Source: an uncultured Rubrobacteraceae bacterium
Lineage (GTDB): Bacteria; Actinomycetota; Rubrobacteria; Rubrobacterales; Rubrobacteraceae
Direction: 5' to 3'
DNA length: 36,528 nucleotides
Assembly (NCBI GenBank): GCA_902805975.1
Contig: CADCUT010000106.1
Span: 1-36,528 of the forward strand
In this document: positions 6,050-24,854 of the stretch, piece by piece
Position numbering within the stretch: the first letter of the stretch is position 1
Layout of the letters: every line of letters starts with the position of its first letter
Translations under genes and position numbers: made by a program
Notes under the pieces: model-generated
Told to the model about the DNA's origin: nothing
Database searches by the model: none
The model's input: the letters and a program-made list of their open reading frames with translations, nothing else

Positions 6050-7867
6050 TTGAGCCTCATAAATCGGAAGAAGAGAGACGGGCGAACCGACCGCGGAGGC
6101 GGCCACGGAGACTACCGATCCAGCTACGGAACCACGGGCAGCCGCCGCTCGCGGCGGCGGCGCGGCTTCGCCGGCCCGATCATCATCATCTGCGCCCTCG
6201 TGGCCGTACTCGTGGCGGCTGACTACTGGTTGAACTCGGGCAACGTCCACCGCGGCGTCGAGGTCGGCAACGTCTCTTTGGGCGGCATGGAGCCGGCCGA
6301 GGCCAGGGAGGTCGTCAGGGAGCGGGCGATGGGCCCCCTGCAGGAGATAGAGCTTAGCGGCCCCGACCGCTTCTCCCGCTCCGCCGAGGAGCTCGGGGTG
6401 AACTTCCACGTGAACGCGACCGTCGACAAGGCCTACGCCGTGGGCCGCGAGGGGAACGTGGCGGAGCGCCTCGGAGAGCGCCTCCAGGCCGCCTTCCCCG
6501 GCATTACCATCGACCCGAACATCGACTACCGCTCCGAGAGGGTCAGGGCCGAGGTCGAGGAGATAGCCGGCCAGGTAGACACGCCGCCCCGGGACGCCAC
6601 GGTAGAGGTCGTGGGCGCCGAGGTCGAGGTCAGCGACTCCCGCGAGGGCTACAGGCTGAACGTCGAGGACACGATGGCGAGCGTGGACGAAGCCATCGAC
6701 GGCATGACCGGCGAGGCGAAACTCCGCGGCGAGGTGCTCGGGCCCCAGATCACCACCGCCGAGGCCGAGACGGCAGCCGAGAAGGCGCAGGGCGCCGTAG
6801 CCCAGCAGCTCGTCTTCGAGCACGAGGACAGGAACTGGACCGTCTCCCCGGCCGACGTGGGCTCGAGCCTCGACGTCGCGCCGAACGACGGCGGGATCTC
6901 GGTGAACCTCAACCGCGACCGCATGAGCGACCGCCTGGCCGCCGTCTACTCCGACCTGACGGTAAAGCCTAAGGACGCCTCCTACGACTTCGACGGTTCC
7001 GGCAACGTGATCGTGCTCCCTAGCCGCGAGGGGCGCACCATCCAGTGGGAGAACCTGCTCGACTCTGTGGAGAACAACCTCTTCGAGGGCAAGCGCGAGT
7101 ACCAGGTACAGACCACCGTCGAGAAGCCCAGGTACACCACAGCTAGCCTCGAAGCCCAGAAGCCGACCGAGCTTATCGGCTCGTACAGGACCAACTACAC
7201 GGCGACCACCGACCAGGGCGCCGAGCGCGTCGCCAACCTCGAGATCGCCGCCAACGCCGTGAGCGGACAGTTCGTGGCACCCGGCGAGACCTTCTCGATC
7301 CTCGACTACGTTACCGACCTCGACTACGAGAAGGCCCACGTCATCGTGGACGGCGCGGAGGAGACGGCGGACGGCGGCGGCCTCTGCCAGGTTACGTCCA
7401 CGCTCTACAACGCGGCCCTCTACGCCGGCATGGAGGTAATAGAACGCCACCCGCACGCCTCGCAGCTGCCTTACATAAGGCCCGGCATGGACGCGACGGT
7501 GTGGTATGGCGACACCTCGACCGAGGCCGACGACCTGGACATGAAGTTCCAGAACACCTCCGAGGGCTACGTGCTCATCCAGGAGTCCGTCTCGGACGAC
7601 GGTTATATCTACGCCAACATCTACGGCGTCCCGGATAACATAGACGTCGAGATGTCCTCAGAAGAGGTGTGGATGACCGACGACGCCTCCGAGTGGACCA
7701 CGAGTTACACGAGGAGCGAGAACGGCAAGGTCGTCTACGAGGACTCGTGGAACACCGACTACGACGCCCTGGTAGACGAGAAGGGCAAGCAGATCAAGAC
7801 CCCCAAGGTCCCGATCGCCGAGGTCGACGGCACCTACAACGGGGTGGACTTCAGCGCCCTCGAGTAG
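6050..7867 (+). CDS. VanW domain membrane protein with two peptidoglycan-binding-4 type repeats
   Basis: VanW proteins occur beside cell-wall genes; the domain's exact reaction is unknown. The protein has a basic cytoplasmic N-terminus, one membrane helix (GPIIIICALVAVLVAADYW, about 42-60) and an extracellular part with two repeats that begin with the HRGVEVGNVSLGGMEPAEA style of YkuD-associated PG_binding_4 domains. The VanW core spans about residues 375-530 and contains GGGLCQVTSTLYNAALYAG and ERHPHASQLPYIRPG. A TTG start at 6050 is chosen because GGAGGG (6035-6040) stands 9 bases upstream; a GTG at 6014 lacks such a site. The 238-base spacer before it has a 6-bp GAGAGG hairpin (5968-5984) but no convincing promoter. 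It is paralogous to the gene at 12651, which has one repeat fewer. Confidence 0.9.
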   Translation: MSLINRKKRDGRTDRGGGHGDYRSSYGTTGSRRSRRRRGFAGPIIIICALVAVLVAADYWLNSGNVHRGVEVGNVSLGGMEPAEAREVVRERAMGPLQEIELSGPDRFSRSAEELGVNFHVNATVDKAYAVGREGNVAERLGERLQAAFPGITIDPNIDYRSERVRAEVEEIAGQVDTPPRDATVEVVGAEVEVSDSREGYRLNVEDTMASVDEAIDGMTGEAKLRGEVLGPQITTAEAETAAEKAQGAVAQQLVFEHEDRNWTVSPADVGSSLDVAPNDGGISVNLNRDRMSDRLAAVYSDLTVKPKDASYDFDGSGNVIVLPSREGRTIQWENLLDSVENNLFEGKREYQVQTTVEKPRYTTASLEAQKPTELIGSYRTNYTATTDQGAERVANLEIAANAVSGQFVAPGETFSILDYVTDLDYEKAHVIVDGAEETADGGGLCQVTSTLYNAALYAGMEVIERHPHASQLPYIRPGMDATVWYGDTSTEADDLDMKFQNTSEGYVLIQESVSDDGYIYANIYGVPDNIDVEMSSEEVWMTDDASEWTTSYTRSENGKVVYEDSWNTDYDALVDEKGKQIKTPKVPIAEVDGTYNGVDFSALE

Positions 7868-7886
7868 CCAACCGCAGACCAACGCA

Positions 7887-7932
7887 CAAAGAAGAGAGGC
7901 CCCCGGTCGAAACCGGGGGCCTCTCTTCTTTG
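7887..7932. terminator. strong bidirectional terminator hairpin
   Basis: A perfect 21-bp stem (7887-7907 with 7912-7932) closes on a CGAA loop. The left strand starts with an A-rich segment (CAAAGAAGAGAG) and the right ends with the T-rich complement (CTCTCTTCTTTG), so each strand ends in a pyrimidine/T-rich tail. It sits between the convergent VanW gene (ends 7867) and decarboxylase gene (ends 7951) and fits an intrinsic terminator for both. Confidence 0.9.
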
Positions 7933-7950
7933 CCTGGCAGGGATCTCTTA

Positions 7951-9282
7951 CTAGAGCGTGAGCGCCTTCTGCCCGTTGAGGACGTCCTCTGGCCTGCCGC
8001 CGGCGCGGAGCAGAACGGCCTCGCCGTCCATGAGGAGCACCTCGGCCGGGGAGGGGTGGCTGAGGAAGCCCAAGTTGGATGCCGAGTAGCCGTAGGCGCC
8101 GCTGTAGAAGACGCCTATGAGGTCGCCGACCTCGGGGGCGGCGAGGGGGATGTTGTTGCCGAAGGAGTCGAGCGGGGTGCAGCAGGGGCCCGCGACGGCG
8201 ACGCCTTCCTCGGGGATGGCCCCGTCCATGCGGGTGAGGTTCAGGAGCGGGTAGGCCTTGCGGAAGACCTGGCCCATGTTGCCCGTGGCTGTTAGGTGGT
8301 GGTTCATGCCGCCGTCGGTGACGGCGAAGGTTTTGCCGCGGGTCTCCTTCACGTCGACGACGCGCGTGACGTAGACGCCGGCGTCGGCGACGAGGTAGCG
8401 GCCGAGCTCGAAGAGGAATCGGCAGCCTTCCAGGCGCGGGTCGGAGCGGTAGCTCGAGACTATCTCGCGCAGGCCCTCGCCGAAGCGGTCGAGGTCGAAC
8501 TCGCTCGTCTTCTCGAAGTAGGGGACGCCGAAGCCGCCGCCGAAGTCGATCATCTCTAGAGAGTGGCCGGCGTGGTCGGCGGCCTCAAGCGCGATGTCGA
8601 AGATGTTGCGGCAGTGCTCCAGCAGCGGGTCCACCTCGAAGACCTGCGTGGCCGTGTAGACGTGGACGCCCCGGAGGTGGAGGCTCTCGTGGGAGAGGAC
8701 CTTCTCCATCGCTTCTGCGAGGTCGGCCTGGTCCATGCCGAACTGGCCGACCGTACCGCCCATGCGCATCCCGCTCCCCATGAGCTGGGCCGCCGGGTTG
8801 ATCCTGAGGCCCACCCCCATCTTGACCCCGGCCCCTTCCGCGATGGCGGCCAGGCGCTCTATCTCACCGAGCGACTCGACGTTGACGGCGTAGATGCCCT
8901 CGTCGACGGACATCTTCAGCTCCTCGTCCGTCTTGGCGGGGCCGGCGAAGACGATGTCCTCAGGGGCGAAGCCGGCGGCGCGGGCCACGATAAGCTCGCC
9001 GGAGGAGGCGACCTCGCCGCCGGCGCCGGCGCGGGCTATCAGGGAGCACACGGCGAGGTTCGGGTTCGCCTTTAGGGAGTAGGCGACCTCGGTGCCCAAG
9101 GCCTCCTGCACGCGGCGGACGCGCTCGGAGATCATCTTCGCGTGGTAGAGGTAGAACGGCGAGCCGTAGCGCTCCGCTATCTCGGAGACGGGGACGCCGC
9201 CAGGGGCGAACTCCCCGCCCTCCGCGCCGGAGCCGCCGAAGCGCCCGGCCAGATCGTTGGCCTTATCCGTTTGTGTAAGCAT
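7951..9282 (-). CDS. PLP-dependent decarboxylase, DapDC/ODC fold type III, carrier-protein-operon type
   Basis: Fold-type III decarboxylases remove the alpha-carboxyl of amino acids or, in the BtrK-like branch, of aminoacyl groups held on a carrier protein. The PLP lysine lies in AYSLKANPN (K71). A Gly-rich phosphate-binding stretch reads IDFGGGFGVPY, and AGPCCTPLDSFG holds the catalytic Cys at the dimer interface. The 443-residue length fits. The ATG at 9282 follows AAGGGGAT and overlaps the ligase gene by 20 bases, which suggests translational coupling. The ligase plus carrier-protein context argues against lysine biosynthesis and for a role like the exosortase-A-associated (TIGR03099) or butirosin BtrK enzymes. 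The amino-acid substrate cannot be read from sequence. Confidence 0.85.
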   Translation of the reverse strand: MLTQTDKANDLAGRFGGSGAEGGEFAPGGVPVSEIAERYGSPFYLYHAKMISERVRRVQEALGTEVAYSLKANPNLAVCSLIARAGAGGEVASSGELIVARAAGFAPEDIVFAGPAKTDEELKMSVDEGIYAVNVESLGEIERLAAIAEGAGVKMGVGLRINPAAQLMGSGMRMGGTVGQFGMDQADLAEAMEKVLSHESLHLRGVHVYTATQVFEVDPLLEHCRNIFDIALEAADHAGHSLEMIDFGGGFGVPYFEKTSEFDLDRFGEGLREIVSSYRSDPRLEGCRFLFELGRYLVADAGVYVTRVVDVKETRGKTFAVTDGGMNHHLTATGNMGQVFRKAYPLLNLTRMDGAIPEEGVAVAGPCCTPLDSFGNNIPLAAPEVGDLIGVFYSGAYGYSASNLGFLSHPSPAEVLLMDGEAVLLRAGGRPEDVLNGQKALTL

Positions 9283-10849
9283 TGGTGATCCCCTTGCGGT
9301 CGATCTTGCCGTTCGCGTTCTTCGGGAGCTCGTCCCTGACGATGATCTCTTTCGGGATCATGTACGGCGGGCCGTTTTTTATGGCGTACTCCCGGATGGC
9401 GTCTATCGCCCCGTCCTCGCCGCCGTTCTTCAAGGAGATCACGGCTATCACGTCGTGGCCGACGGCCGGGTTCTCGACCCCGAAGGCGCAGGCCTCGTGG
9501 ACCAGCCCGGAACCTAGCAGGAGGTTCTCGACCTCCTCGGGGCTCAGGCGGTAGCCCTGGTTCTTGATCATGGCGTCCTCGCGCCCGAGGAAGTACAAAT
9601 ACCCCTCCTCGTCCCGCGTGACGGTGTCCCCCGAGTACACGACCCGCTCCACGTCGAGAAGCCCCGGCGGGGCGAGCGGGTTCGGGCGGTAGGCCTTCTG
9701 CGTAGCCTCCTCGTTGCCCCAGTAGCCCATAGCAACGGTGGGGCCGCGGTGGACCAGCTCTCCCGGCTCGCCGGGGGCCGCCTCTTTACCCTCTTTGTCT
9801 ATGACCATGATTTCGGTGTTCGGGATGGCCTTGCCGATACAGTTGCCCTGCTCGGGGCTCGAGCGGTGGATCTGCGCCGGGTCGAGGTACGTCGAGCGGA
9901 AGGCTTCGGTGAGGCCGTACATCAGGAAGATCCTGGTCCCTGAGGGCTCCAGCAGGTTCCTCAGCTCATCCAGGTTTGCCTGCGGTATCCGGCCGCCGGT
10001 GTTGGCGAGGTAGCGCAGGTGCGTGAGCGGGTTCTCCCGCAAAGATTTCGCGCTCCGGATCAGGAGCGCCCACAGCGGCGGCACGCCCGTAACGCCCGTG
10101 ATCTCGTGCCGGCGCAGGCCCTTCAGGAGGTCCCCCGGCAGCCTGGAACGCAGCAGGTACAGCGTCGCCCCGGCCCGAAGCGAGGTCGTGAACTGGCTCA
10201 TCCCCGCGTCGAAGTTCAAGGGGAGTGCCGAGAGGATGCGGTCCTCCGGCGTGTTCTCAAGGTACGTGGAGACGATCTGGGCCCCGACGACCACGTTTCG
10301 CTGGCTCGTCGCCACGCCTTTCGGCATCCCGGTCGAGCCGGACGTGTACAGGATCGTCCCGAGGTCGATCTCGGAGACCTCCCGGTCCTCCTCCAGGCCA
10401 TCTCCTTTCAACGCCTCGGCGACGTCCACGAAGGACCTTGCGGCGCTGCCTTCGGGCTTCTCGCCCCTGTAGAACGCCGTCTCGACGGTCTTCGGCCGGA
10501 GCTCGTCGAGTTTGCCGGTGTCCCCGATCATGACGCGTATGTCGCAGTCTCCCGCCAGGTACTCGATCTGGGGCGCCTTGAAGAGCGGGTTAACGTTGAC
10601 GTATGCGGCCCCGACTCTGGAGGCCGCGAGCATCGAGACGATGGCCTCCCAGGACTTCTCGACGAGCACCCCGACCCTGTCGCCCTTGCCGACGCCGGCG
10701 TCAACGAGGGCCGCCCCGAGGGCGCTGCTCTGCTTTTCGAGGTCCTCGTAGGTGTACTCTGCGTCACCGTCTACGACCGCGAGCTTCCCGGGGTCGCGCT
10801 CTAAAGAGTTATGGAGAAGGTCGTGGAGGGTGAATTCCGGGCGGGGCAT
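9263..10849 (-). CDS. AMP-forming acyl/aminoacyl ligase (ANL superfamily), carrier-protein loading
   Basis: These enzymes adenylate a carboxylate and pass it to CoA or a phosphopantetheine carrier. Visible motifs are the P-loop LYTSGSTGMPKG (168-178), the YSGDT motif, the hinge region YLYFLGREDAMIKNQGYRLSPEEVE, and NANGKIDRKG with the adenylation lysine K515; 528 residues is a normal length. The start ATG at 10849 shares one base with the stop of the carrier-protein gene (TGATG), so the two are translationally coupled. The ACP partner indicates loading onto the carrier rather than CoA. It resembles the exosortase-A-associated ligases (TIGR03098) in organisation, but no exosortase gene lies in this window. 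Confidence 0.87.
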   Translation of the reverse strand: MPRPEFTLHDLLHNSLERDPGKLAVVDGDAEYTYEDLEKQSSALGAALVDAGVGKGDRVGVLVEKSWEAIVSMLAASRVGAAYVNVNPLFKAPQIEYLAGDCDIRVMIGDTGKLDELRPKTVETAFYRGEKPEGSAARSFVDVAEALKGDGLEEDREVSEIDLGTILYTSGSTGMPKGVATSQRNVVVGAQIVSTYLENTPEDRILSALPLNFDAGMSQFTTSLRAGATLYLLRSRLPGDLLKGLRRHEITGVTGVPPLWALLIRSAKSLRENPLTHLRYLANTGGRIPQANLDELRNLLEPSGTRIFLMYGLTEAFRSTYLDPAQIHRSSPEQGNCIGKAIPNTEIMVIDKEGKEAAPGEPGELVHRGPTVAMGYWGNEEATQKAYRPNPLAPPGLLDVERVVYSGDTVTRDEEGYLYFLGREDAMIKNQGYRLSPEEVENLLLGSGLVHEACAFGVENPAVGHDVIAVISLKNGGEDGAIDAIREYAIKNGPPYMIPKEIIVRDELPKNANGKIDRKGITNAYTNG

Positions 10850-17620: not shown

Positions 17621-18451
17621 CTACGGGATCTCTTCCGGGGGGCGGCCGATCCACTCCTCGTAGATCTCCTCGTAGGTGCCGTCCTCTTTGATCTCGGACA
17701 AGGCCTGGTTGACGGGCTCGATGAGGGGGCTGTCTTTTGGAAAGGCGATGCCGTACTGGGAGCCCGTGGGGATGACCTCGACGAGCTCGAGCTCCCCGCC
17801 GGATTCCTCCACCTCCGTCTGCGCGGCCGGGAGGTCGTAGATCACACCATCCACCATTCCCTGCTCCAGCGCGGTGAAGGCCGCGTCTATGGTGTTGTCG
17901 AAGGTGCGCACCGCCTCGACGTCGCCGGCGTTGAGGAGCTCTCCGGCCTCGGCCTGGCCCATAGTGCCGGTCTGGACGCCTAAAGTCATCTCCGCGAGGT
18001 CGCCGGTCGACTCTATCTCCGAGCCGCTGCGGACGACGAGCGCCTCGTCCACGTTGTAGTAGGGGTCGGAGAAATCTACCTGCTGACGCCGGTCGGCGGT
18101 GATGGTCATGCCCGAGATGACCGCGTCGAAGAGGTCGGAGGAGAGGCCCCTGATGAGGCTGTCGAACTGGACGTTCCTGTACTTGACCTCGAGGCCCGTC
18201 CGGTCGGCGATCTCGTTCATCAGGTCGATGTCGAAGCCCTTGGGACCCTCGCGCGGGGCGAACTCGAAGGGGGGATAGGCGACGTTGGAGGCGACGACTA
18301 TCTCGCCGTCGGCCAGCGCCGAGCTCGTCGTCTCCTCCTCCCGCACGACGTCAGCCGGGGACGGTTCGTCGTCCCCCGCGCTGCATCCCGTCGCAAAGAA
18401 GGCGCACAGGACGAGCGTCGCCGCCAGATACCTCACCGACCACCCTCTCAC
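17621..18451 (-). CDS. amino-acid ABC transporter substrate-binding lipoprotein (SBP family 3), copy 1
   Basis: This is a periplasm-type binding lipoprotein for polar amino acids (PF00497). The signal peptide ends in a lipobox with C23 (FATGC). Family signatures are ASNVAYPPFEF, GFDIDLMNEIADRTGLEVKY, FDAVISGMTITADRRQQVDFSDPYY and YGIAFPKDSPL. It is paralogous to the protein at 24057: both end in KEDGTYEEIY.EWIGR-PEEIP style. The GTG at 18451 follows GGAGGGAAGG at 8 bases. It has its own promoter at 18530-18558. Before the element at 18.6-23.3 kb inserted, the permease gene would have ended 130 bases upstream. Its ligand cannot be told from sequence. Confidence 0.9.
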   Translation of the reverse strand: MRGWSVRYLAATLVLCAFFATGCSAGDDEPSPADVVREEETTSSALADGEIVVASNVAYPPFEFAPREGPKGFDIDLMNEIADRTGLEVKYRNVQFDSLIRGLSSDLFDAVISGMTITADRRQQVDFSDPYYNVDEALVVRSGSEIESTGDLAEMTLGVQTGTMGQAEAGELLNAGDVEAVRTFDNTIDAAFTALEQGMVDGVIYDLPAAQTEVEESGGELELVEVIPTGSQYGIAFPKDSPLIEPVNQALSEIKEDGTYEEIYEEWIGRPPEEIP

Positions 18452-18529: not shown

Positions 18530-18558
18530 ATACTATTCAGCCGACAGGACGGGGTCAA
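18530..18558 (-). promoter_or_regulatory. candidate promoter of binding-protein gene copy 1
   Basis: On the minus strand, TTGACC (18558-18553), 17 bases and TAGTAT (18535-18530) form a good promoter. Transcription would start near 18523, giving a leader of about 70 bases. The same TTGACC-17-TAnnnT layout stands before the second binding-protein gene and the APC permease gene. Confidence 0.65.
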
Positions 18559-18580: not shown

Positions 18581-18659
18581 CTACGCCGTACGGCGGTTCA
18601 GGCGCCGTTCGAGGCCGCTCGCCAGGTAGATCAGGGGCAGGCAGATCGCCAGGCAGAAG
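18581..18659 (-). pseudogene. stranded native 3' end of the amino-acid ABC permease gene
   Basis: Read on the minus strand this encodes the last 25 residues of the permease at 23312: FCLAICLPLIYLASGLERRLNRRTA and a TAG stop. The permease itself has FYLAICLPL and LANGLE at these places. The final five residues NRRTA use GC-rich codons here (cgc cgt acg gcg) but agg aga aca gcc in the intact gene. Similarity stops abruptly at 18659. The simplest reading is that this is the original chromosomal gene end, cut off from its body by insertion of an element whose own tail now completes the gene. Confidence 0.8.
18596..18659. repeat. left direct repeat (attL-like) of the integrated element
   Basis: Sixty-four bases here match 23327-23390 in the same orientation with only three differences (at 18601, 18618 and 18654 by my alignment). 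The repeat lies in the permease coding 3' end and marks the left boundary of the element. Confidence 0.82.
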
Positions 18660-18740
18660 TAGCATTCGGAGGATTCTACCCCATCACGGTCCTCCATCTG
18701 ACAGCTTAGAGACAGCTACGGAAGGGAGGGACGGGTGGGA

Positions 18741-19229
18741 ATGAAGCGGCGCGGGGCCGGTGAGGGGGCATCTACCGGCGCAAGGACGGTAGGCGGGTGG
18801 GCCAGTACGAGGTCGGGGGAAAGCGGCGTTACGCCCACGGCAAAGACAGGGACGGGATCAGAACCAAGCTGATGAAAGCCCTCGCGGATCGGGACGCGGG
18901 GCTGGTCCTCGATTCGCGGAACCTCACCGCTGGCGAGTACGCGCCTCTGTAGCTCGACTCGATCAGGAAGGCCGTTTGCCCCCGCACCTGGAAGCGCCCC
19001 GAGGAGCTAACCCGGCTGCACATGGTACCCGGCTCGGCACACCAAGCTCGACAAGCTGAATGCCTTGCAGGTCCAGGCCCTCTACCGCAAGAGGCTCGAT
19101 TCCGGCCTTTCCCCCACCACCGTCAGGAAGGTTCTAGGGTTTTCGACATCTCCCAGGCGGGTGGCGGAGGCCGTACAAGGCCACAGCGGGCTGCGTCTTC
19201 CGTACAATCCCGTCTTGGTCGGGTACTAG
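18741..19229 (+). pseudogene. decayed tyrosine-type phage integrase (N-terminal part only)
   Basis: Three frames together spell an integrase N-terminus: MKRRGAGEG, then after a one-base shift near 18768 IYRRKDGRRVGQYEVGGKRRY, KLMKALADRDAGL and NLTAGEYAPL. An in-frame TAG follows at 18950-18952, then KAVCPRTWKRPEELTRLH. After a second shift near 19040 comes HTKLDKLNALQVQALYRKRL and DSGLSPTTVRKVL. The last part (PRRVAEAVQGHSG) looks like the segment just before the catalytic domain, with about 20 residues missing before it. The catalytic Arg-His-Arg-Tyr domain is absent. These are the SAM-like arm and core-binding domains of a Rubrobacter/phage-type integrase, inactivated by frameshifts, a stop and truncation. 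Confidence 0.82.
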
Positions 19230-19396
19230 CCGGGGCTGACTCCGCCGCGTGGCTAGCCCACTCCCGAAACACCCACGTATTGGGCCAGCGCGATCTTATA
19301 CACCACATGACGTATAGTATGCATTGATATCCTCTACATGCTAGGCTATTGCCGGGGTTTGGAAGTCGTTGGTACGACCGGACAAGGGATTGTGGC

Positions 19397-19597
19397 GTGA
19401 AGAAAACTGAGGACGGGACCACCGGGGCCAGGACGAGGACCGTGCGCTGGATCGAGTCGCTGTGGGAGGGCACGAACACCACCGCCAGGGAGGAAGACCA
19501 GAAGGAAGAGGTCCTTTCGGTCTTCCGGGAGTTGGTGAGAGAGTCCAAGCAGGAGGGAGAGATACGCGAGTACGTGCCCTGGCAACCGCTCTGGTAG
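19397..19597 (+). CDS. small charged hypothetical protein, 66 residues, element cargo
   Basis: A GTG start at 19397 stands 7 bases after AAGGGA. The product (VKKTEDGTTGARTRTVRWIESLWEG..., then EDQKEEVLSVFRELVRES and ending EYVPWQPLW) is soluble, acidic and probably helical. Third positions are mostly G/C, which fits a real gene despite its small size. A weak promoter (TTGATA-17-TATTGC) lies about 60 bases upstream, in an AT-rich patch at 19290-19335. No family is recognised. It lies just inside the integrase remnant. Confidence 0.5.
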   Translation: MKKTEDGTTGARTRTVRWIESLWEGTNTTAREEDQKEEVLSVFRELVRESKQEGEIREYVPWQPLW

Positions 19598-19617
19598 CTC
19601 TGCGCACCTTCGGTAGG

Positions 19618-19797
19618 TCAGCCCTCCAACCTGCACCGCCCGCGCATTCTGTGAACCCTTCCCCTGCGGAGCGCCTCGTGCGGCACCCGGCACCTGCGGC
19701 TCGCGGTTTGCTCTTCGAATAGCGACAAGCCGTATCCGATGGCCGAGGTCGCGAAGGCCACCGTTAGAACGAAGACGAAAAACGACAAGACCTGCAA
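19618..19797 (-). CDS. 59-residue single-pass membrane peptide, element cargo
   Basis: A TTG at 19797 follows a very strong AGGAGGGGG site at 5 bases. The peptide begins QVLSFFVFVLTVAFATSAIGYG, a membrane helix of about 22-25 residues near the N-terminus, followed by a highly basic tail (SRRCRVPHEALRRGRVHRMRGRCRLEG) that should face the cytoplasm. A canonical promoter lies just upstream at 19826-19854. Promoter, leader of about 20 bases, binding site and helix all line up, which supports expression. Function is unknown; toxin-like, regulator or exclusion peptides have this shape. Confidence 0.5.
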   Translation of the reverse strand: MQVLSFFVFVLTVAFATSAIGYGLSLFEEQTASRRCRVPHEALRRGRVHRMRGRCRLEG

Positions 19798-19825
19798 GGT
19801 GACCCCCTCCTGCTCCAGTCGGGGC

Positions 19826-19854
19826 GTTATAGCAAACGCTACTTCCACCGGCAA
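19826..19854 (-). promoter_or_regulatory. candidate promoter of the 59-residue membrane peptide
   Basis: On the minus strand, TTGCCG (19854-19849), 17 bases and TATAAC (19831-19826) precede the AGGAGGGGG site. Transcription would begin near 19819, about 22 bases before the TTG. The stretch from here to 20229 holds no supportable gene on either strand. Confidence 0.55.
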
Positions 19855-20229
19855 GGACGTTCTTTTTTCCGCGCTACCGCTAGATGACCGAAGCCCGCAG
19901 AACCCAATATGTGGTCGAGGAGAAAAGGGAACCGGTGCCCTCTGAGGGATGGCAAAGGGAAAAGAGGAGCCGGGAACCGGGTGACGGTCACGTTCGAATC
20001 GCACACAGAGGCGAAGGACAACTACTCCGCCATTGCATTGGCACAATATAGGCTGAAGTGTGCGGCATGCCGGGGTCTAGCCAAGGTAAGTCGAGCGGGA
20101 CGACCGCCCTACCCGGGAGCGTCCCTCCCTCTTGTCGGAACTTCTTGCGTCGTGTTCCGTGAAAGGTGGCACGAGCTACATACAAAGGTGTAGTAGTGTG
20201 ATACAAAACACAGTAGGGTGAAGGGAAAG

Positions 20230-20274
20230 GAAGCCGCTTGGGGTCAGAGAGCAGTGGCCTGGCCCCACGGCTTC
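20230..20274 (+). promoter_or_regulatory. structured leader hairpin upstream of a small gene
   Basis: A two-part stem: GAAGCCG (20230-20236) pairs with CGGCTTC (20268-20274), and after a two-base bulge TGGGG (20239-20243) pairs with CCCCA (20263-20267), closing on a 19-base loop. No T-tract follows, so it is not a simple terminator. It ends 14 bases before the GTG start at 20289 and could control translation or stabilise the message. AT-rich sequence at 20170-20215 upstream might hold its promoter, but no boxes fit well. Confidence 0.4.
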
Positions 20275-20288
20275 GATTATGTAAAGGG

Positions 20289-20531
20289 GTGAATGGTTTG
20301 GAGTCGTGCGAAGTACGCACCGGGTCGGTGGTGCGGCTGCTGGACGGTGGGAGGCGTGGTGAAAAGGGTTGCGTGGGCACGGTGGAGAGAACCTACGGCC
20401 ATCCCGACTACCTGGCGATGGAGGTTCGCTTCAAGGATGGGAGCACGGAGCTTTGCTGGCACCACGAGTTGGCGAAGGCGGAGGAAGGCGAACGGCCCTC
20501 CTCACGAAGCGCCTCCGATGGCGGTGGCTGA
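20289..20531 (+). CDS. small hypothetical protein, probable SH3-like beta barrel, element cargo
   Basis: A GTG at 20289 overlaps an AAAGGGG sequence; a TTG at 20298 is an alternative. The 80-residue product has a core that looks like a small beta barrel: VRTGSVVRLLDGGRRGEKGCVGTVERTY, then YLAMEVRFKDGSTELCWHHELAKAEE. This is the layout of KOW/SH3-like domains, an inference from pattern only. The gene overlaps the next one by 14 bases, suggesting coupling. A hairpin leader precedes it. Confidence 0.55.
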   Translation: MNGLESCEVRTGSVVRLLDGGRRGEKGCVGTVERTYGHPDYLAMEVRFKDGSTELCWHHELAKAEEGERPSSRSASDGGG

Positions 20532-20712
20532 CAGCGGTCTTGGCGAGGCGGGCGGCTACGATGGACTCGGGCTGCCCTTCGGCTACCGCCTGGAACGCCG
20601 GGACGATCTGCTGATACTGCGTAGGGCCGATGGCTCCGACGTGGCCGCGTTCGGTGCCGTGGAATTGGACCCGTTCGAGGTCGAGTTGGCAGTGTGGGAG
20701 GATGCCGATTAG
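20518..20712 (+). CDS. small hypothetical protein, 64 residues, element cargo
   Basis: The ATG at 20518 lies within the last codons of the preceding gene in another frame. The product (YDGLGLPFGYRLERRDDLLILRRADGSDVAAFGAVELDPFEVELAVWEDAD) is acidic and compact, with beta strands followed by a C-terminal helix. Short proteins with the LxLxRRADGSxVAAFSA pattern are, as I recall, common in Rubrobacter genomes. Codon third positions favour G/C. No function is known. Confidence 0.55.
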   Translation: MAVADSGLGEAGGYDGLGLPFGYRLERRDDLLILRRADGSDVAAFGAVELDPFEVELAVWEDAD

Positions 20713-20759
20713 CGTCCTGCGGCACATACCTTGACGCGGTGCCCGCATAGACTGAAGTC

Positions 20760-20945
20760 GTGACGGAGCTACGCAAGACCGGGGCCAACGAGTACGACGT
20801 TGTGGCGAACGGGTGGGTGCTCGGGCGGGTGTGGAATTGGCACGGTCGCTGGTCAGCCGAAGCCAACGGACAGACCCATCACGGTCTCAAGAGCCGCAAA
20901 GAGGCCATCGCCAAAGTCGAGCGTATCCACGGGTCCAAACAGTAG
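20760..20945 (+). CDS. small hypothetical protein, 61 residues, element cargo
   Basis: A GTG start at 20760 begins TELRKTGANEYDVVANGWVLG, followed by RVWNWHGRWSAEANGQTHHG and a basic helix KSRKEAIAKVERIHGSKQ. The pattern (two strands, a WNWHGRW loop and a C-terminal helix) suggests a small folded protein of a repeated actinobacterial type; I cannot name the family. It follows the previous small gene by 47 bases on the same strand. After its stop, 20946-21183 holds no convincing gene. Confidence 0.55.
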   Translation: MTELRKTGANEYDVVANGWVLGRVWNWHGRWSAEANGQTHHGLKSRKEAIAKVERIHGSKQ

Positions 20946-21106
20946 CGAAGCCCTGAAGGCCGTTCTTGATCCCGATCATCAAGCACTATATGTCTAACCG
21001 TAGGTGCTCCCCATGTTTTCGGGCCTGGGTCCCTGGTCTCGACCTCGAATCCTTGGAAGACGGGTTCTGGAAAAAGGACCCTCTAGCACCATTTTGGTGT
21101 TTGTGC

Positions 21107-21127
21107 GCCTGGCACGTGCCTGGCACG
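21107..21127 (+). repeat. short tandem repeat with embedded palindrome
   Basis: GCCTGGCACG occurs twice in a row (21107-21116 and 21118-21127), and GGCACGTGCC at 21111-21120 is a perfect palindrome. It lies in the non-coding stretch downstream of both the small genes and the convergent membrane-protein gene. It might be part of a terminator or a protein site; no T-tract is present. Confidence 0.35.
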
Positions 21128-21183
21128 CCTTATACGGGTCTGAGACTCCTAGAGGCCACCGGATGATAGAAGTCGCTAGTAGG

Positions 21184-22827
21184 TTACTCTTTCTTCCTGC
21201 TGTCCAGCTCGTTGGCCGCTTCGCTTATCATCCTGATTAGCTCCTCCTCGCTCATCTCGGAGACATCGACCGGAGACTGAGAAGCGGGGGGCTGCGCCGG
21301 TTGCTCCTCTTGCGCCCCTGCTTCCGGCGTTGCGGGCGCTTCCTCGAACGCTCCCAGGGAGCCTCCCTCCTCGACGTTCACGGTCTGGCCGGATTCCTCC
21401 CCCTCCACGAAGGCGACAACGTCCTCGTAGGTTTCGAGGACCGTTACCTCGCCCTGTTCGGAAGCGTTGACCATCACGGTCTGGTTGACCCCCGCCTTAT
21501 CGGCGTTGGTGATGGTGGCCATCCAGTAGAGGGTCTTGCTCTTTACCACCGGCCTGGGTTCTAGTATGACCGCGTTTAGGCCCCACTGGTAGTTGGGGAA
21601 CGCGGCCTTGGCGTAATCCAGGGCCTTGTTGACCCCGATCAGGGCGCTGCCCGTGTCGGGTTTAAAGTAGGTAACCTCGCCGCTGTGGGCATCCACGTAG
21701 ATGCCCCGGTACATCGAGAAACTCCGACCGTAGGGTTCGGCTGCCGAGAACCATTGGGGTCCCTCTCCCGTGGGGATGAGGAAGGGCATCTCGTTTGCCG
21801 AGGACCCTTGGGGAGTAGCGGCGGTCTCCGGGTCGGGTGCGGCCTGTTCCCCCGAAGCGTCTATCCGGGGGATTCGGGCCTCGTTCTCGTGGGCGAACCA
21901 GGTGTTCCAGTAGCCGTTACGGTACTTCCAGACATCACCCACCCTCCTCGCCAACTCCTCGGGGTAGAGCCTCTCCCCGTCAAAGCGACCGTCCCTAACG
22001 GCTTCTTCGGGGGAGAGGTTCTCCACCTCTCCGTCGGGGTGAACGACCAGGACCCCGCCCCACCGGGGCACCATGACCGGGAAGGAGAACTCGTAGCTTA
22101 TGTACGGGACCACCCCGAGTAGCTCCTCACCGTCCAGGACGTAGTACTGGTTCGTGTGGTGGGCGAAAAACTTCTCCCTCTTGAGCCTCCAATTGATGTT
22201 CCTGTGGAGGGCCATGCCCTCGCCCCGCCTGAATTCCTGGTTCACGGTCTCGGCGGACCCGTCGGGCCGGATGACCATGACCCCATCCTGGTTATTGATC
22301 AGGGAGTTGTAGAGGCCGTTGGGTTCCCTCGGTGCCACCCAATCTATCCCGCCCTCGCCGTTCTCCAAGGGTTCGAATTGCCCGAGCACGAGGGTGGAGT
22401 CATCCTGGGTGTTCTGCCCGAAGCGGGCGGCCACGTCGTAGGGGAGGAACCTTACCCCTAGCGTGTCGGGCATCTCCTCGATCTCTTCGGCCTCTACCGA
22501 ATCCAAGTACTTCAGGTCCCGCAGCGGCGCAGCCACGATCAGGTAGGCCAGGGCCGCGACGATGGCAACCACCCCCACCACCTTCGCCGGGTCCTTGTCT
22601 CCCACCCGCCAGAGGTAGGCACCGAAGACCGTACCGGCCAGCACCACGATGAGGAATGGCCAGCTTACGTACAGCGCCATGAGCAGACCGTGGAAGACTG
22701 GAGAGACCAGCCACGCGAAGAACAGGGCCACCACCAGCCCCACGACCAGACGTACCCGTCCAGCAGATGACAAACGCGAGTACAAGCGCGATGACAATTC
22801 GCTCAGGCGTTTGACGATCTCGTCCAT
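21184..22827 (-). CDS. large membrane protein of unknown function, main cargo of the element
   Basis: This 547-residue protein was not recognised. The N-terminal 110 residues hold an amphipathic start (VKRLSELSSRLYSRLSSAG) and about four membrane helices (VRLVVGLVVALFFAWLVSPVF, LLMALYVSWPFLIVVLAGTVF, VVGVVAIVAALAYLIVAAPL). A long soluble domain of about 370 residues follows, rich in Trp/Tyr and with repeated VRPDGS/VHPDGE turns. A PepSY-like turn appears in YVDAHSGEVTYF, with a following YAKAAFPNYQW. The last 75 residues are a Pro/Glu/Ala linker and a short helix MSEEELIRMISEAANEL. The ATG at 22827 follows GGGAGGA at 8 bases. Codon use is that of a functioning gene, which is notable beside the dead integrase. 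Confidence 0.75.
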   Translation of the reverse strand: MDEIVKRLSELSSRLYSRLSSAGRVRLVVGLVVALFFAWLVSPVFHGLLMALYVSWPFLIVVLAGTVFGAYLWRVGDKDPAKVVGVVAIVAALAYLIVAAPLRDLKYLDSVEAEEIEEMPDTLGVRFLPYDVAARFGQNTQDDSTLVLGQFEPLENGEGGIDWVAPREPNGLYNSLINNQDGVMVIRPDGSAETVNQEFRRGEGMALHRNINWRLKREKFFAHHTNQYYVLDGEELLGVVPYISYEFSFPVMVPRWGGVLVVHPDGEVENLSPEEAVRDGRFDGERLYPEELARRVGDVWKYRNGYWNTWFAHENEARIPRIDASGEQAAPDPETAATPQGSSANEMPFLIPTGEGPQWFSAAEPYGRSFSMYRGIYVDAHSGEVTYFKPDTGSALIGVNKALDYAKAAFPNYQWGLNAVILEPRPVVKSKTLYWMATITNADKAGVNQTVMVNASEQGEVTVLETYEDVVAFVEGEESGQTVNVEEGGSLGAFEEAPATPEAGAQEEQPAQPPASQSPVDVSEMSEEELIRMISEAANELDSRKKE

Positions 22828-23311
22828 CCGCTTGTCCTCCCTAGGCTCTCTTACCCAAGTCTATACTCTCGCTCCGTGATTGCGTCTGTGGTGTGGCCCT
22901 CAGGATGCCCCCGGAAACCGGAAAAGACCGTGCCTCGGGCGATGGATCAGACAACTTGGAAAACGCGCTCTACCGTGCCCTGCAAGGTACCCGAGAGGCT
23001 TTCTGCGGACCTCGATCTACGGTTCTGATCGGCGGTGGGGAGGAGGAGACGGCCAGAGGCCCTCAGAAGCCAAACATGGCTACGATTCTCCGCAATTGTG
23101 CGCCGATGGTTGGCTGTCATCCGGGCGCGTCGAGCGGCGGTGGATCGTGCTCTACACGGGCTTCGATACCAACGTTCAAGACCACTAGGAGCGTCCACGG
23201 CCAGCGGGTCGATGCCGGGAGCGCGGTGGTTCTCTCACACAACCAGTCCGAAGAAGCGCCCTTCGGACCGTACAATCCCAAGAGAGGATTCGGGATAGAT
23301 AAAGGCAATCG
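22828..23311. other. non-coding right flank of the element
   Basis: In these 484 bases open frames exist, but their composition is not protein-like and no family motif or ribosome binding site supports any of them. A TATAGA box near 22858-22863 (minus strand) could be a -10 for the membrane-protein gene, without a matching -35. The stretch ends at the TGA of the permease. It may contain remnants too decayed to read. Confidence 0.5.
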
Positions 23312-24034
23312 TCAGGCTGTTCTCCTGTTCAAGCGCCGTTCGAGGCCGTTCGCCAGGTAGATCAGGGGCAGGCAGATCGCCAGGTAGAAGAGCGCCGCCG
23401 CCACCAGCGGCGTCGAGTTGGCCGTCGCCGACTGCAAGACCCGCGCCGAGCGCAAGAGCTCTTCGAGGCCTATCACCGAGACGATGGACGTGTCCTTTAT
23501 GAGCATCACGAACTCGTTGGTCAAGGGGGGGATGACGCGCCGGAAGGCCTGCGGGACGATGATGTGGCGCATGGTCTGGGCGTAGGTCAGCCCCGAGGCC
23601 CTCCCCGCCTCCATCTGGCCGCGGTCTATGCTCTGGATGCCGGAGCGGAAGATCTCCGCGACGTAGGCCGCGCTGTTCAGCGTGAGCGCTACGAGGCCCG
23701 CGAAGAACAGGCTCTCTATCCGGATACCGATATTCGGCGTGGCGAAGTAGATAAAGATTATCTGGATGAGGAGCGGCGTCCCCCGGAAGACGTCTATGTA
23801 GACCTGGGCGGGGGCTGAGAGGAGCCTCGAGCGGCCTATCTTCATCAGCGCCAGCACGAGCCCGAGGATTATGCCCAGGACCTCAGCCAGGAGCGCCAGG
23901 AGGATGGTGATGAGGAACGCCTGCAGGAGCGAGTCGAAGTTCTGCAAGACGATCCCTAGGTCCAGGTAGCTCTCGCGGATGTTCTGCAGGCTGAAGAAGC
24001 TCGGGTCGAACTCTACCGGCAGCTCGAACGGCAC
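23312..24034 (-). CDS. polar amino-acid ABC transporter permease (GlnP/HisM type), 3' end supplied by the element
   Basis: This is the inner-membrane subunit that forms the translocation path with a GlnQ-type ATPase. Five or six membrane helices are visible (AFLITILLALLAEVLGIILGLVLA onward), together with FRGTPLLIQIIF and the ATPase-contact EAA loop EAGRASGLTYAQTMRHIIVPQAFRRVIPPL. Its 240 residues are a little longer than usual because of an N-terminal extension. The last codons (N R R T A, TGA) use AT-richer codons than the stranded native copy at 18581, so the gene is a hybrid of chromosome and element. It starts 22 bases after the binding-protein gene and is cotranscribed with it. No ATPase gene is adjacent; the one at 30254 is a candidate partner. 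Confidence 0.92.
   Translation of the reverse strand: MPFELPVEFDPSFFSLQNIRESYLDLGIVLQNFDSLLQAFLITILLALLAEVLGIILGLVLALMKIGRSRLLSAPAQVYIDVFRGTPLLIQIIFIYFATPNIGIRIESLFFAGLVALTLNSAAYVAEIFRSGIQSIDRGQMEAGRASGLTYAQTMRHIIVPQAFRRVIPPLTNEFVMLIKDTSIVSVIGLEELLRSARVLQSATANSTPLVAAALFYLAICLPLIYLANGLERRLNRRTA
23327..23390. repeat. right direct repeat (attR-like) of the integrated element
   Basis: This matches 18596-18659 at 61 of 64 positions. Bases 23312-23326, between this repeat and the permease stop, encode the same residues as 18581-18595 but share almost no synonymous codon choice, so homology at DNA level ends at the repeat edge. Confidence 0.82.
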
Positions 24035-24056: not shown

Positions 24057-24854
24057 CTACTGCGGTATCTCTTCGGGGGCGCGGCCTATCCACTTCTTGT
24101 AGATCTCCTCGTAAGTGCCGTCTTCTTTTATCTTGGCGAGCGCCTCGTTCACGTCCTGGCGCATGTCGGAACCCTTGGGGAAGGCGATGCCGTACTGCTC
24201 GCCGGTGGCGATGACCTCGACGATCTCGAGCTCCCCGTCGCTGTTGTTAACCTCATCCTGGGAGACGGGCAGGTCGTTGATGATGGCGTCTATCTGGCCG
24301 TTGTTGAGCGCCGCGAACGCGTCCTCTATGGTGTCGAAGGTGCGGATCTCGCCGGTGATATCGCCCTGCTCCTCGAACTCGTTCGCCTTGATCTCGCCGG
24401 TCGTGCCGATCTGGACGCCGACGGTCGCGTCCCCGATCTCACCCACGGACCCTATGTCGGAATCGCTTGGCACGAGCAGGGACTGGTCCGCGTTGAAGTA
24501 CGGGTCGGAGAAGTCTATCTGCTCCTGGCGCTCCGGCGTGATGGTCATCGCCGAGATGACGACATCGTACTGGTTGTTGCGCAGACCGCCGATGATGCCG
24601 TCGAAGGTGACGTTCTGGTACTCGGGCGTGAAGCCGGCGCGCCGGCCGATCTCGTCCATCAGGTCTATGTCGAACCCGACGGGCTCGCCGTCCCTCTCGA
24701 ACTCGAAAGGCGGGTACGCGATGTCCGACGCGACGCTGACGTCTTCGCCGCCCCCGCCTCCACTGCCACCACCGCCGCAGGCGGCGAGCGTCGCCATCAA
24801 CGCCGCCGCGAGAACGAACAGCGTCAGAACCCTCCCGAACAAACCCTTTGGCAT
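24057..24854 (-). CDS. amino-acid ABC transporter substrate-binding lipoprotein (SBP family 3), copy 2
   Basis: This is a 265-residue binding protein for polar amino acids. The signal peptide ends at LAAC with lipid-anchor C26, followed by a Gly-rich linker. Family signatures are ASDIAYPPFEFERDGEPVGFDIDLMDEIG, YDVVISAMTITPERQEQIDFSDPYF and YGIAFPKGSDM. The ATG at 24854 follows AGAAGGG. It is the first gene of an operon with the permease 22 bases downstream, driven by a strong promoter at 24925-24953. Its paralogue is at 17621; before insertion of the element the order was copy 2, permease, copy 1. Confidence 0.93.
   Translation of the reverse strand: MPKGLFGRVLTLFVLAAALMATLAACGGGGSGGGGGEDVSVASDIAYPPFEFERDGEPVGFDIDLMDEIGRRAGFTPEYQNVTFDGIIGGLRNNQYDVVISAMTITPERQEQIDFSDPYFNADQSLLVPSDSDIGSVGEIGDATVGVQIGTTGEIKANEFEEQGDITGEIRTFDTIEDAFAALNNGQIDAIINDLPVSQDEVNNSDGELEIVEVIATGEQYGIAFPKGSDMRQDVNEALAKIKEDGTYEEIYKKWIGRAPEEIPQ

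What the first reader, a model, noticed from the sequence alone, without database searches (positions are those of the whole stretch)
18581..23390. Element inserted in an ABC permease gene and restoring its C-terminus with recoded codons
A 64-bp direct repeat (61/64) flanks about 4.7 kb inside the permease 3' end. The stranded left tail and the tail in the working gene both encode NRRTA-stop but with different codons, GC-rich in the stranded copy and AT-richer in the working one. This is the mark of a site-specific element that uses a protein-coding transporter gene as attachment site and carries a silent-change replacement end. Tail-restoring integration is known for tRNA and some protein genes; this target is, to my knowledge, unusual. 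The codon contrast argues against simple gene duplication.
Basis: partly seen in the sequence, partly recalled or inferred. Interest (0 to 1): 0.82.

Follow-up and report, generated by a model that had tools for sequence, protein, structure and literature searches.

The report
Dead genomic island in a permease gene
A small, now apparently immobile genomic island once inserted itself into the end of an amino-acid transporter gene in an actinobacterium and supplied its own copy of the gene's last codons, so the protein stayed intact; this is a well-known trick of mobile elements, here at a target gene not met in the reports searched.

Summary
The window has a 64-bp direct repeat (61/64) flanking 4,652 nt at the 3' end of an amino-acid ABC permease gene. 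Three congeneric species carry the empty site: the permease ends with the GC-rich "stranded" codon type and the next gene, a second binding protein, follows directly. Another congener, AVDCRST_MAG01 (G004), is occupied like the window, with the same tail (one silent difference), a stranded tail and a related integrase remnant beside it. The element's 21-nt tail differs from the host type at 8 or 9 positions, all synonymous (about 2 in a million or fewer by chance). The integrase is broken and lacks all (window) or most (G004) of its catalytic domain, so the island looks immobile. Of 29 related integrase loci, 16 have a tRNA 3' end facing the integrase, including the four closest. Tail-restoring integration into protein genes is established (e14 in icd; ICEs in rplL, rpsI, guaA). 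This target was not met in eight literature searches. Verdict: a well-supported new member of a known kind.

The parts
23312..24034 (-). amino-acid ABC transporter permease, the target gene; its last 21 nt are element-derived
   Evidence: Pfam BPD_transp_1 E 1.7e-30; NCBIfam HEQRo_perm_3TM above its cut-off, while the cystine, EhuD and GlnP permease models match below theirs, so the substrate is not settled; 22 of 39 family genomes have a match at E<=1e-60
23312..23332 (-). replacement gene end supplied by the element (LNRRTA-stop, TTG AAC AGG AGA ACA GCC TGA)
   Evidence: absent from the three empty sites, present in both occupied genomes; synonymous-only differences
23333..23389 (-). att identity block (57 nt), gene-side copy; crossover lies somewhere inside
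   Evidence: 55 of 57 identical to the other copy
18602..18658 (-). att identity block (57 nt), integrase-side copy
18581..18601 (-). stranded original gene end (LNRRTA-stop, CTG AAC CGC CGT ACG GCG TAG)
   Evidence: one difference from the empty-site tail of G002
18741..19214 (+). tyrosine-integrase pseudogene: N-terminal and core-binding part only, two frame changes, one in-frame TAG; end approximate
   Evidence: tblastn with the G004 fragment, 72% and 56% in two pieces, and with the L029 integrase up to its residue 189; Phage_int_SAM_3 in the G004 homolog E 2e-10
20238..20531 (+). small ORF of unknown function, island cargo; homolog in the G004 island
   Evidence: 40% over 77 aa to L020 8755-8985; no PHROG or Pfam match
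21184..22827 (-). 547-aa protein, hydrophobic N-terminal part by eye, unknown function, island cargo
   Evidence: 12 of 39 family genomes, own included, have a match at E<=1e-5; in G005 it lies between tRNA-Glu and a duplicated tRNA-Glu end; no Pfam match above cut-off, no PHROG or NCBIfam match
17621..18451 (-). second solute-binding protein gene, host gene directly downstream of the permease at empty sites
   Evidence: SBP_bac_3 E 6e-41; 79-82% identity within +133..+974 after the permease stop in G002, G005, G008; 95% identity in G004 on the contig with the stranded tail
18530..18558 (-). promoter-like site (TTGACC-17-TAGTAT) before the second binding-protein gene, left on the host side of the insertion
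   Evidence: 1 found, 0.9 expected from shuffles, so weak alone; a similar string stands at the same place in G002, G004, G005 and G008, seen by eye

Best explanation
A site-specific genomic island used the 3' end of an amino-acid ABC permease gene as attB. Its attP carried a block of about 57 bp matching the gene, followed by its own version of the last seven codons including the stop. Strand exchange by the island's tyrosine integrase inside the block left the host's original tail stranded beside the integrase and put the island's tail onto the permease, so the protein is unchanged. Selection on the permease kept the new tail synonymous while silent positions differ. The downstream binding-protein gene kept its own promoter-like site. 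The integration most likely happened in the common ancestor of the window species and AVDCRST_MAG01; afterwards the integrase decayed further in each, leaving a fixed, immobile island. Shown: empty sites, occupied sites, tail swap, broken integrases. Inferred: integrase-mediated crossover, a single ancestral event, the joining of the two G004 contigs into one island, promoter use, unchanged permease function.
For: Empty site in 3 genomes, with the permease directly followed by the second binding-protein gene. Two occupied genomes share the tail, 23 of the 28 nt just past the stop and the integrase-side arm (86% over about 466 nt, element only). A 35-nt core pattern (up to 2 mismatches) occurs twice only in the two occupied genomes and once in the 6 other genomes that have it; 8 of 39 family genomes match. 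The integrase start lies 77-82 nt from the int-side core, similar to the tRNA 3' end to integrase spacing in the four closest relatives, 101-201 nt. In 16 of the 29 relative loci examined a tRNA 3' end faces the integrase at 91-201 nt. The cargo gene is shared with a tRNA-Glu island in G005. Island G+C is 0.615 against 0.67 for the rest of the window, a weak sign because the adjoining permease and binding-protein genes are 0.633.
Against: No intact copy of the element or of its attP was found: viral contigs held no relative of the integrase fragment and no exact match to the tail pattern, so the crossover itself is not seen. Within each occupied genome the two core copies share variants that differ between the genomes (GCG...CGG in the window, GCA...CGC in G004), which a single old integration with independent drift does not predict. 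The window's assembly is 82% complete in 238 contigs, and the G004 island is split over two contigs.
Confidence: 0.93

Rival explanations
1. Tandem duplication of the binding-protein/permease pair followed by loss of most of the second permease, with unrelated DNA moved in between.
For: Two related binding-protein genes flank the region (direct-repeat families of 71-82%).
Against: Empty-site relatives have both binding-protein genes but one permease, with the second binding-protein gene directly after it. The stranded end meets the same foreign arm, with an integrase start, in two species.
Confidence: 0.02
2. The island inserted independently in the two lineages at the same site, with related but different elements.
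For: Core copies share lineage-specific variants within each genome. Cargo differs: the 547-aa gene has no match in G004, an 88%-complete assembly. The island arm is 86% identical between the two, the permease 94%.
Against: The two genomes are closest to each other at the permease (94% DNA; next best 91%). A lower identity of the arm is also expected from drift in a pseudogene. Gene conversion between the copies explains the shared variants.
Confidence: 0.2
3. Insertion by a transposon or by homologous recombination through a chance 64-bp match.
For: The G004 island contains an IS4/5-type transposase gene (DDE_Tnp_1, E 5.9e-11), so transposons have been active in it.
Against: A 64-bp duplication is far longer than a usual target-site duplication (recalled). 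The transposase ORF lies about 2 kb from the core, while an integrase start lies beside the core in both genomes; the replacement tail is synonymous.
Confidence: 0.02

Closest known systems
Cryptic prophage e14 in icd of E. coli
   Same: Integrates near the 3' end of a metabolic protein gene and supplies a replacement end; the displaced original end remains beyond the element. PMC11148124 (passages read): insertion after codon 362, duplication of 165 bp, 12 nt exchanges with two conservative aa changes, intact reading frame.
   Different: Target is icd, a longer block, and a prophage. Here the block is about 57 bp, the target is an ABC permease, and no phage genes were recognised.
Streptococcal ICEs in 3' ends of rplL, rpsI, lysS, rpmG, guaA
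   Same: Tyrosine integrase and direct repeats of 12-54 bp; [quoted passage not shown]
   Different: Those are conjugative elements or their derivatives; no conjugation gene was recognised here, and the target genes differ.
Actinobacterial AICEs and tRNA-gene islands (Islander class)
   Same: Tyrosine integrase, restored target gene and displaced fragment at the island ends (PMC4383910, abstract and section list only; PMC3218068, passages). The closest integrase relatives here adjoin tRNA genes.
   Different: Target is protein-coding. PMC3218068 reports Rubrobacteridae as devoid of AICEs, and no AICE gene was recognised here.
GInts of Pseudomonas
   Same: Genomic islands with a tyrosine recombinase that target an ABC transporter gene (PMC5385486, passages read).
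   Different: 5' end of the gene, 10-11 nt imperfect repeats, a ginABCD operon; where they sit at a 3' end the paper describes a changed C-terminus, not a restored one.
Pneumococcal prophage group PPH115
   Same: Its attB is listed between a sugar ABC transporter permease gene and the next gene (PMC8637289, table passages).
   Different: Listed by flanking loci only; the passages do not show a restored permease tail.

Membership tests
Genomic island with gene-restoring attachment site | Direct repeat containing the 3' part of a host gene at both ends | tested here: met
Genomic island with gene-restoring attachment site | Empty site in relatives | tested here: met
   G002, G005, G008
Genomic island with gene-restoring attachment site | Target gene still encodes the full protein after integration | tested here: met
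   same LNRRTA-stop end and open reading frame in both occupied genomes; protein function not tested
Genomic island with gene-restoring attachment site | Functional integrase in the element | tested here: not met
   broken in both occupied genomes; so filed as a decayed member
Tyrosine recombinase (Phage_int_SAM_3 plus Phage_integrase) | Core-binding domain | tested here: met
   G004 fragment, E 2e-10
Tyrosine recombinase (Phage_int_SAM_3 plus Phage_integrase) | Catalytic domain | tested here: not met
   tblastn with the 373-aa L029 integrase reaches residue 189 in the window and 228 in G004, while the Phage_integrase domain of L029 spans about 189-355
Prophage | Structural or packaging genes | tested here: not met
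   none of the 17 ORFs of at least 90 aa overlapping the island matches a PHROG at E<=0.01; one is a sub-cut-off Pfam match to Rz1 (18.4 bits, cut-off 27.9); shorter ORFs not scanned
ICE / AICE | Conjugation or DNA-translocation genes | tested here: not met
   none of the same 17 ORFs has a Pfam match above cut-off; shorter ORFs not scanned

The most novel reading that the evidence does not exclude
A tRNA-gene integrase lineage of Rubrobacteraceae switched to a protein-coding target by picking up the end of an amino-acid permease gene from another genus of the family. The element's tail is nearest (5 or 6 of 21 differences) to permease tails of other genera (G127/G095, G073), while it differs at 8-11 positions from the empty-site species of its own genus. 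This would give a directly comparable pair of related integrases, one on a tRNA gene and one on a protein gene.
Probability: 0.25. Interest if true: 0.5.

Novelty: new member of a known kind. Interest (0 to 1): 0.36.

Why it matters
It is a clean case, with empty and occupied sister genomes, of an element preserving the protein it lands in by a purely synonymous replacement end. It adds an amino-acid ABC permease to the protein genes used as attachment sites. It also places a protein-gene island next to tRNA-gene relatives in one integrase lineage, which is useful for asking how integrases change target.

Tried and rejected
Tandem gene duplication was rejected by the empty sites. A phage or plasmid origin was sought: viral contigs gave no relative of the integrase fragment and no exact match to the tail pattern; phage records gave only distant integrases, 545 records all below 60% identity, best listed 36%; plasmids gave 32 records, all below 60%. 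None of the 17 island ORFs of at least 90 aa matched a PHROG or a Pfam family above cut-off. A second island at the same permease elsewhere in the family: no integrase match (E<=1e-5) in the about 1.5 kb or less held beyond the stop, a weak test because the window's own integrase lies further off than that. G303, which has the closest integrase relative, has a permease 3' end of host type; the 5' part of that gene is cut by a contig edge, which is why one search missed it. Other protein-gene targets among the nine integrase loci without a tRNA gene: ORFs were listed, no target was identified. Stretches around tRNA-type islands (L099-L103) and three more contigs (L107-L109) were fetched; apart from a relative's integrase in L103 they were not analysed. 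In one search two of the small-ORF queries (sorfB, sorfC) were cut in the wrong frame and count for nothing. The 547-aa protein has no family above cut-off. Literature: ten searches ran, of which eight bear on target genes or gene restoration, one on Rubrobacter islands, and one listed only an irrelevant paper. Passages were also seen in PMC10383233, PMC8191103 and PMC5704250, with nothing on this target. No listing or passage seen reported restoration of an ABC permease 3' end; the library holds open-licence PMC papers only, and supplements were not open to me.
Full report
What was checked. The window is contig C106 of a 3.53-Mb, 82%-complete assembly in 238 contigs. The occupied relative G004 is a public MAG: its contig C529 is CADCUW010000529.1, 'uncultured Rubrobacteraceae bacterium isolate AVDCRST_MAG01' (same length, 100% match). 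The permease gene is 23312-24034 on the minus strand, with a solute-binding protein gene upstream (24057-24854) and a second one beyond the repeat (17621-18451).

The tail swap. Read on the minus strand, the identity block is 57 nt long (window 23389-23333 and 18658-18602; 55 of 57 identical, and 56 of 57 in G004). After it the working gene continues TTG AAC AGG AGA ACA GCC TGA and the stranded copy CTG AAC CGC CGT ACG GCG TAG; both mean LNRRTA-stop. Between the element-type tail and the empty-site tail of G002 there are 8 (G004) or 9 (window) differences in 21 nt, all synonymous. Among all 21-nt sequences with 8 or 9 differences from that tail, 2.4e-6 or 2.4e-7 are fully synonymous. The chance is approximate: it takes all substitutions as equally likely, and I chose the stretch after seeing it. 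In 15 long ORFs of the window, picked and not verified as genes, AGA makes up 3.5%, AGG 15% and TTG 6% of the codons for their amino acid, so the element's tail uses rarer host codons.

Empty and occupied sites. In the genus search (9 genomes including the window's own) the whole permease including its last 15 nt matched only in G000 and G004; G002, G005 and G008 matched to position 708 of 723; the other four gave only short or distant matches or none. In those three the permease ends with the GC-rich tail, and the second binding-protein gene follows at +133 to +148. In G004 the permease (contig C286) has the AGG-AGA tail and runs into element DNA, while contig C529 carries the stranded tail, with the second binding-protein gene (95% identity) on one side and the integrase start on the other. 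In the family search 22 of 39 genomes had a permease match at E<=1e-60, one match each, and the end could be read in 21. The final residues are NRRTA (twice with one more A) in 13 of 21, NRKTA in 5, NRRVA in 2, TRRTA in 1. So the tail the element restores is a conserved protein end. A 35-nt core pattern with up to 2 mismatches was found in 8 of 39 genomes, twice in G000 and G004 only.

The element. Its integrase-side arm is 86% identical to G004 over about 466 nt; just past the permease stop 23 of 28 nt agree. The integrase is a pseudogene in both. In the window it has two frame changes and an in-frame TAG, and a 373-aa relative (L029) can be aligned only up to its residue 189. In G004 it changes frame near L020 8235, and L029 can be aligned up to residue 228 (L020 8353). 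The Phage_integrase domain of L029 spans about residues 189-355, so the window lacks all of it and G004 most of it. The element is therefore very probably immobile on its own. Other contents are small ORFs (one with a 40% homolog in the G004 island) and a 547-aa protein of unknown family. None of the 17 ORFs of at least 90 aa matches a PHROG or a Pfam family above cut-off. In G005 a homolog of the 547-aa gene lies between a tRNA-Glu gene (L105 9995-10068) and a 41-nt copy (95%) of that tRNA's 3' part (7814-7854), so the gene has also been cargo of a tRNA-type island.

Where the integrase comes from. A 172-aa open fragment from G004 matched 46 of 396 genomes of the phylum at E<=1e-20. Loci were made for 29 of the listed matches besides G004's own (L027-L055). 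Three of the 16 (L038, L039, L042) are near-identical, so they are not independent. In a tree of the 30 fragments the permease integrase pairs with L027 (tRNA-Ile; 59% identity) with support 93/86. That pair groups with L028 and L030 (tRNA-Arg) at 89/75, and within a 7-member group at 94/84. Support is moderate: 4 of 26 inner branches are fully supported. So descent from a tRNA-targeting lineage is likely, not proved. One geometric difference should be told: in L027-L030 the tRNA gene itself adjoins the integrase, while here the integrase adjoins the stranded end and the working gene lies at the far end.

How it most likely works. Integration by the tyrosine integrase between an attP carrying block plus tail and the permease 3' end puts the island's tail onto the gene and strands the host's tail. 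Selection on the permease then keeps only synonymous differences. PMC10111431 (passages read) states the principle for icd and many tRNA genes: the attP carries a replacement sequence so that the target gene still works. A promoter-like site (TTGACC-17-TAGTAT) before the second binding-protein gene remains on the host side. It is the only one found in the region, against 0.9 expected by chance, but a similar string stands at the same place in the four related genomes (by eye).

What does not fit. Within each occupied genome both core copies share two variants that differ between the two genomes. This points to gene conversion between the copies or to two separate integrations. The 547-aa cargo gene has no match in G004, so the two islands differ in content. 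Island G+C (0.615) is below the rest of the window (0.67), but the adjoining permease and binding-protein genes are also low (0.633), so composition is weak evidence.

Novelty. The kind is established: e14 in icd (PMC11148124, passages), streptococcal ICEs in rplL, rpsI, lysS, rpmG and guaA (PMC4701971, passages), and gene-restoring islands in general (PMC12884075, passages; PMC4383910, abstract). ABC transporter genes as island targets also have precedents of a different form: GInts at a 5' end (PMC5385486, passages) and pneumococcal PPH115 next to a permease gene (PMC8637289, passages). No listing or passage I saw reported a restored 3' end of an amino-acid ABC permease; the searches are named in Tried and rejected. 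I therefore call it a new member of a known kind, well supported, of modest interest.

Noticed in passing
L105 (G005:C108) 7814-10068: A roughly 2.2-kb island lies between tRNA-Glu(ctc) and a 41-nt copy of its 3' part, carrying a homolog of the window's 547-aa gene; no relative of this integrase was found in the 17 kb fetched.
   Followed up: partly
window 18602-18658 and 23333-23389; L020 7580-7642; L021 14145-14223: The two core copies within each occupied genome share variants that differ between genomes, which suggests gene conversion or separate integrations.
   Followed up: partly
window 19580-19935; L020 9288-9619; L021 14653-14968 and 15920-16115: A stretch of about 200-340 nt occurs once in the window island and three times on the two G004 island contigs (70-82% identity); it may encode a small membrane protein by eye.
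   Followed up: no
L020 9674-10510: The G004 island contains an IS4/5-type transposase gene (DDE_Tnp_1, DUF4096).
   Followed up: partly
window 18660-23311: Pieces of the island match other contigs of the genus (7 of 9 genomes, own included; for example G005:C129, G004:C537, G004:C454), so its contents look like mosaic island material.
   Followed up: partly
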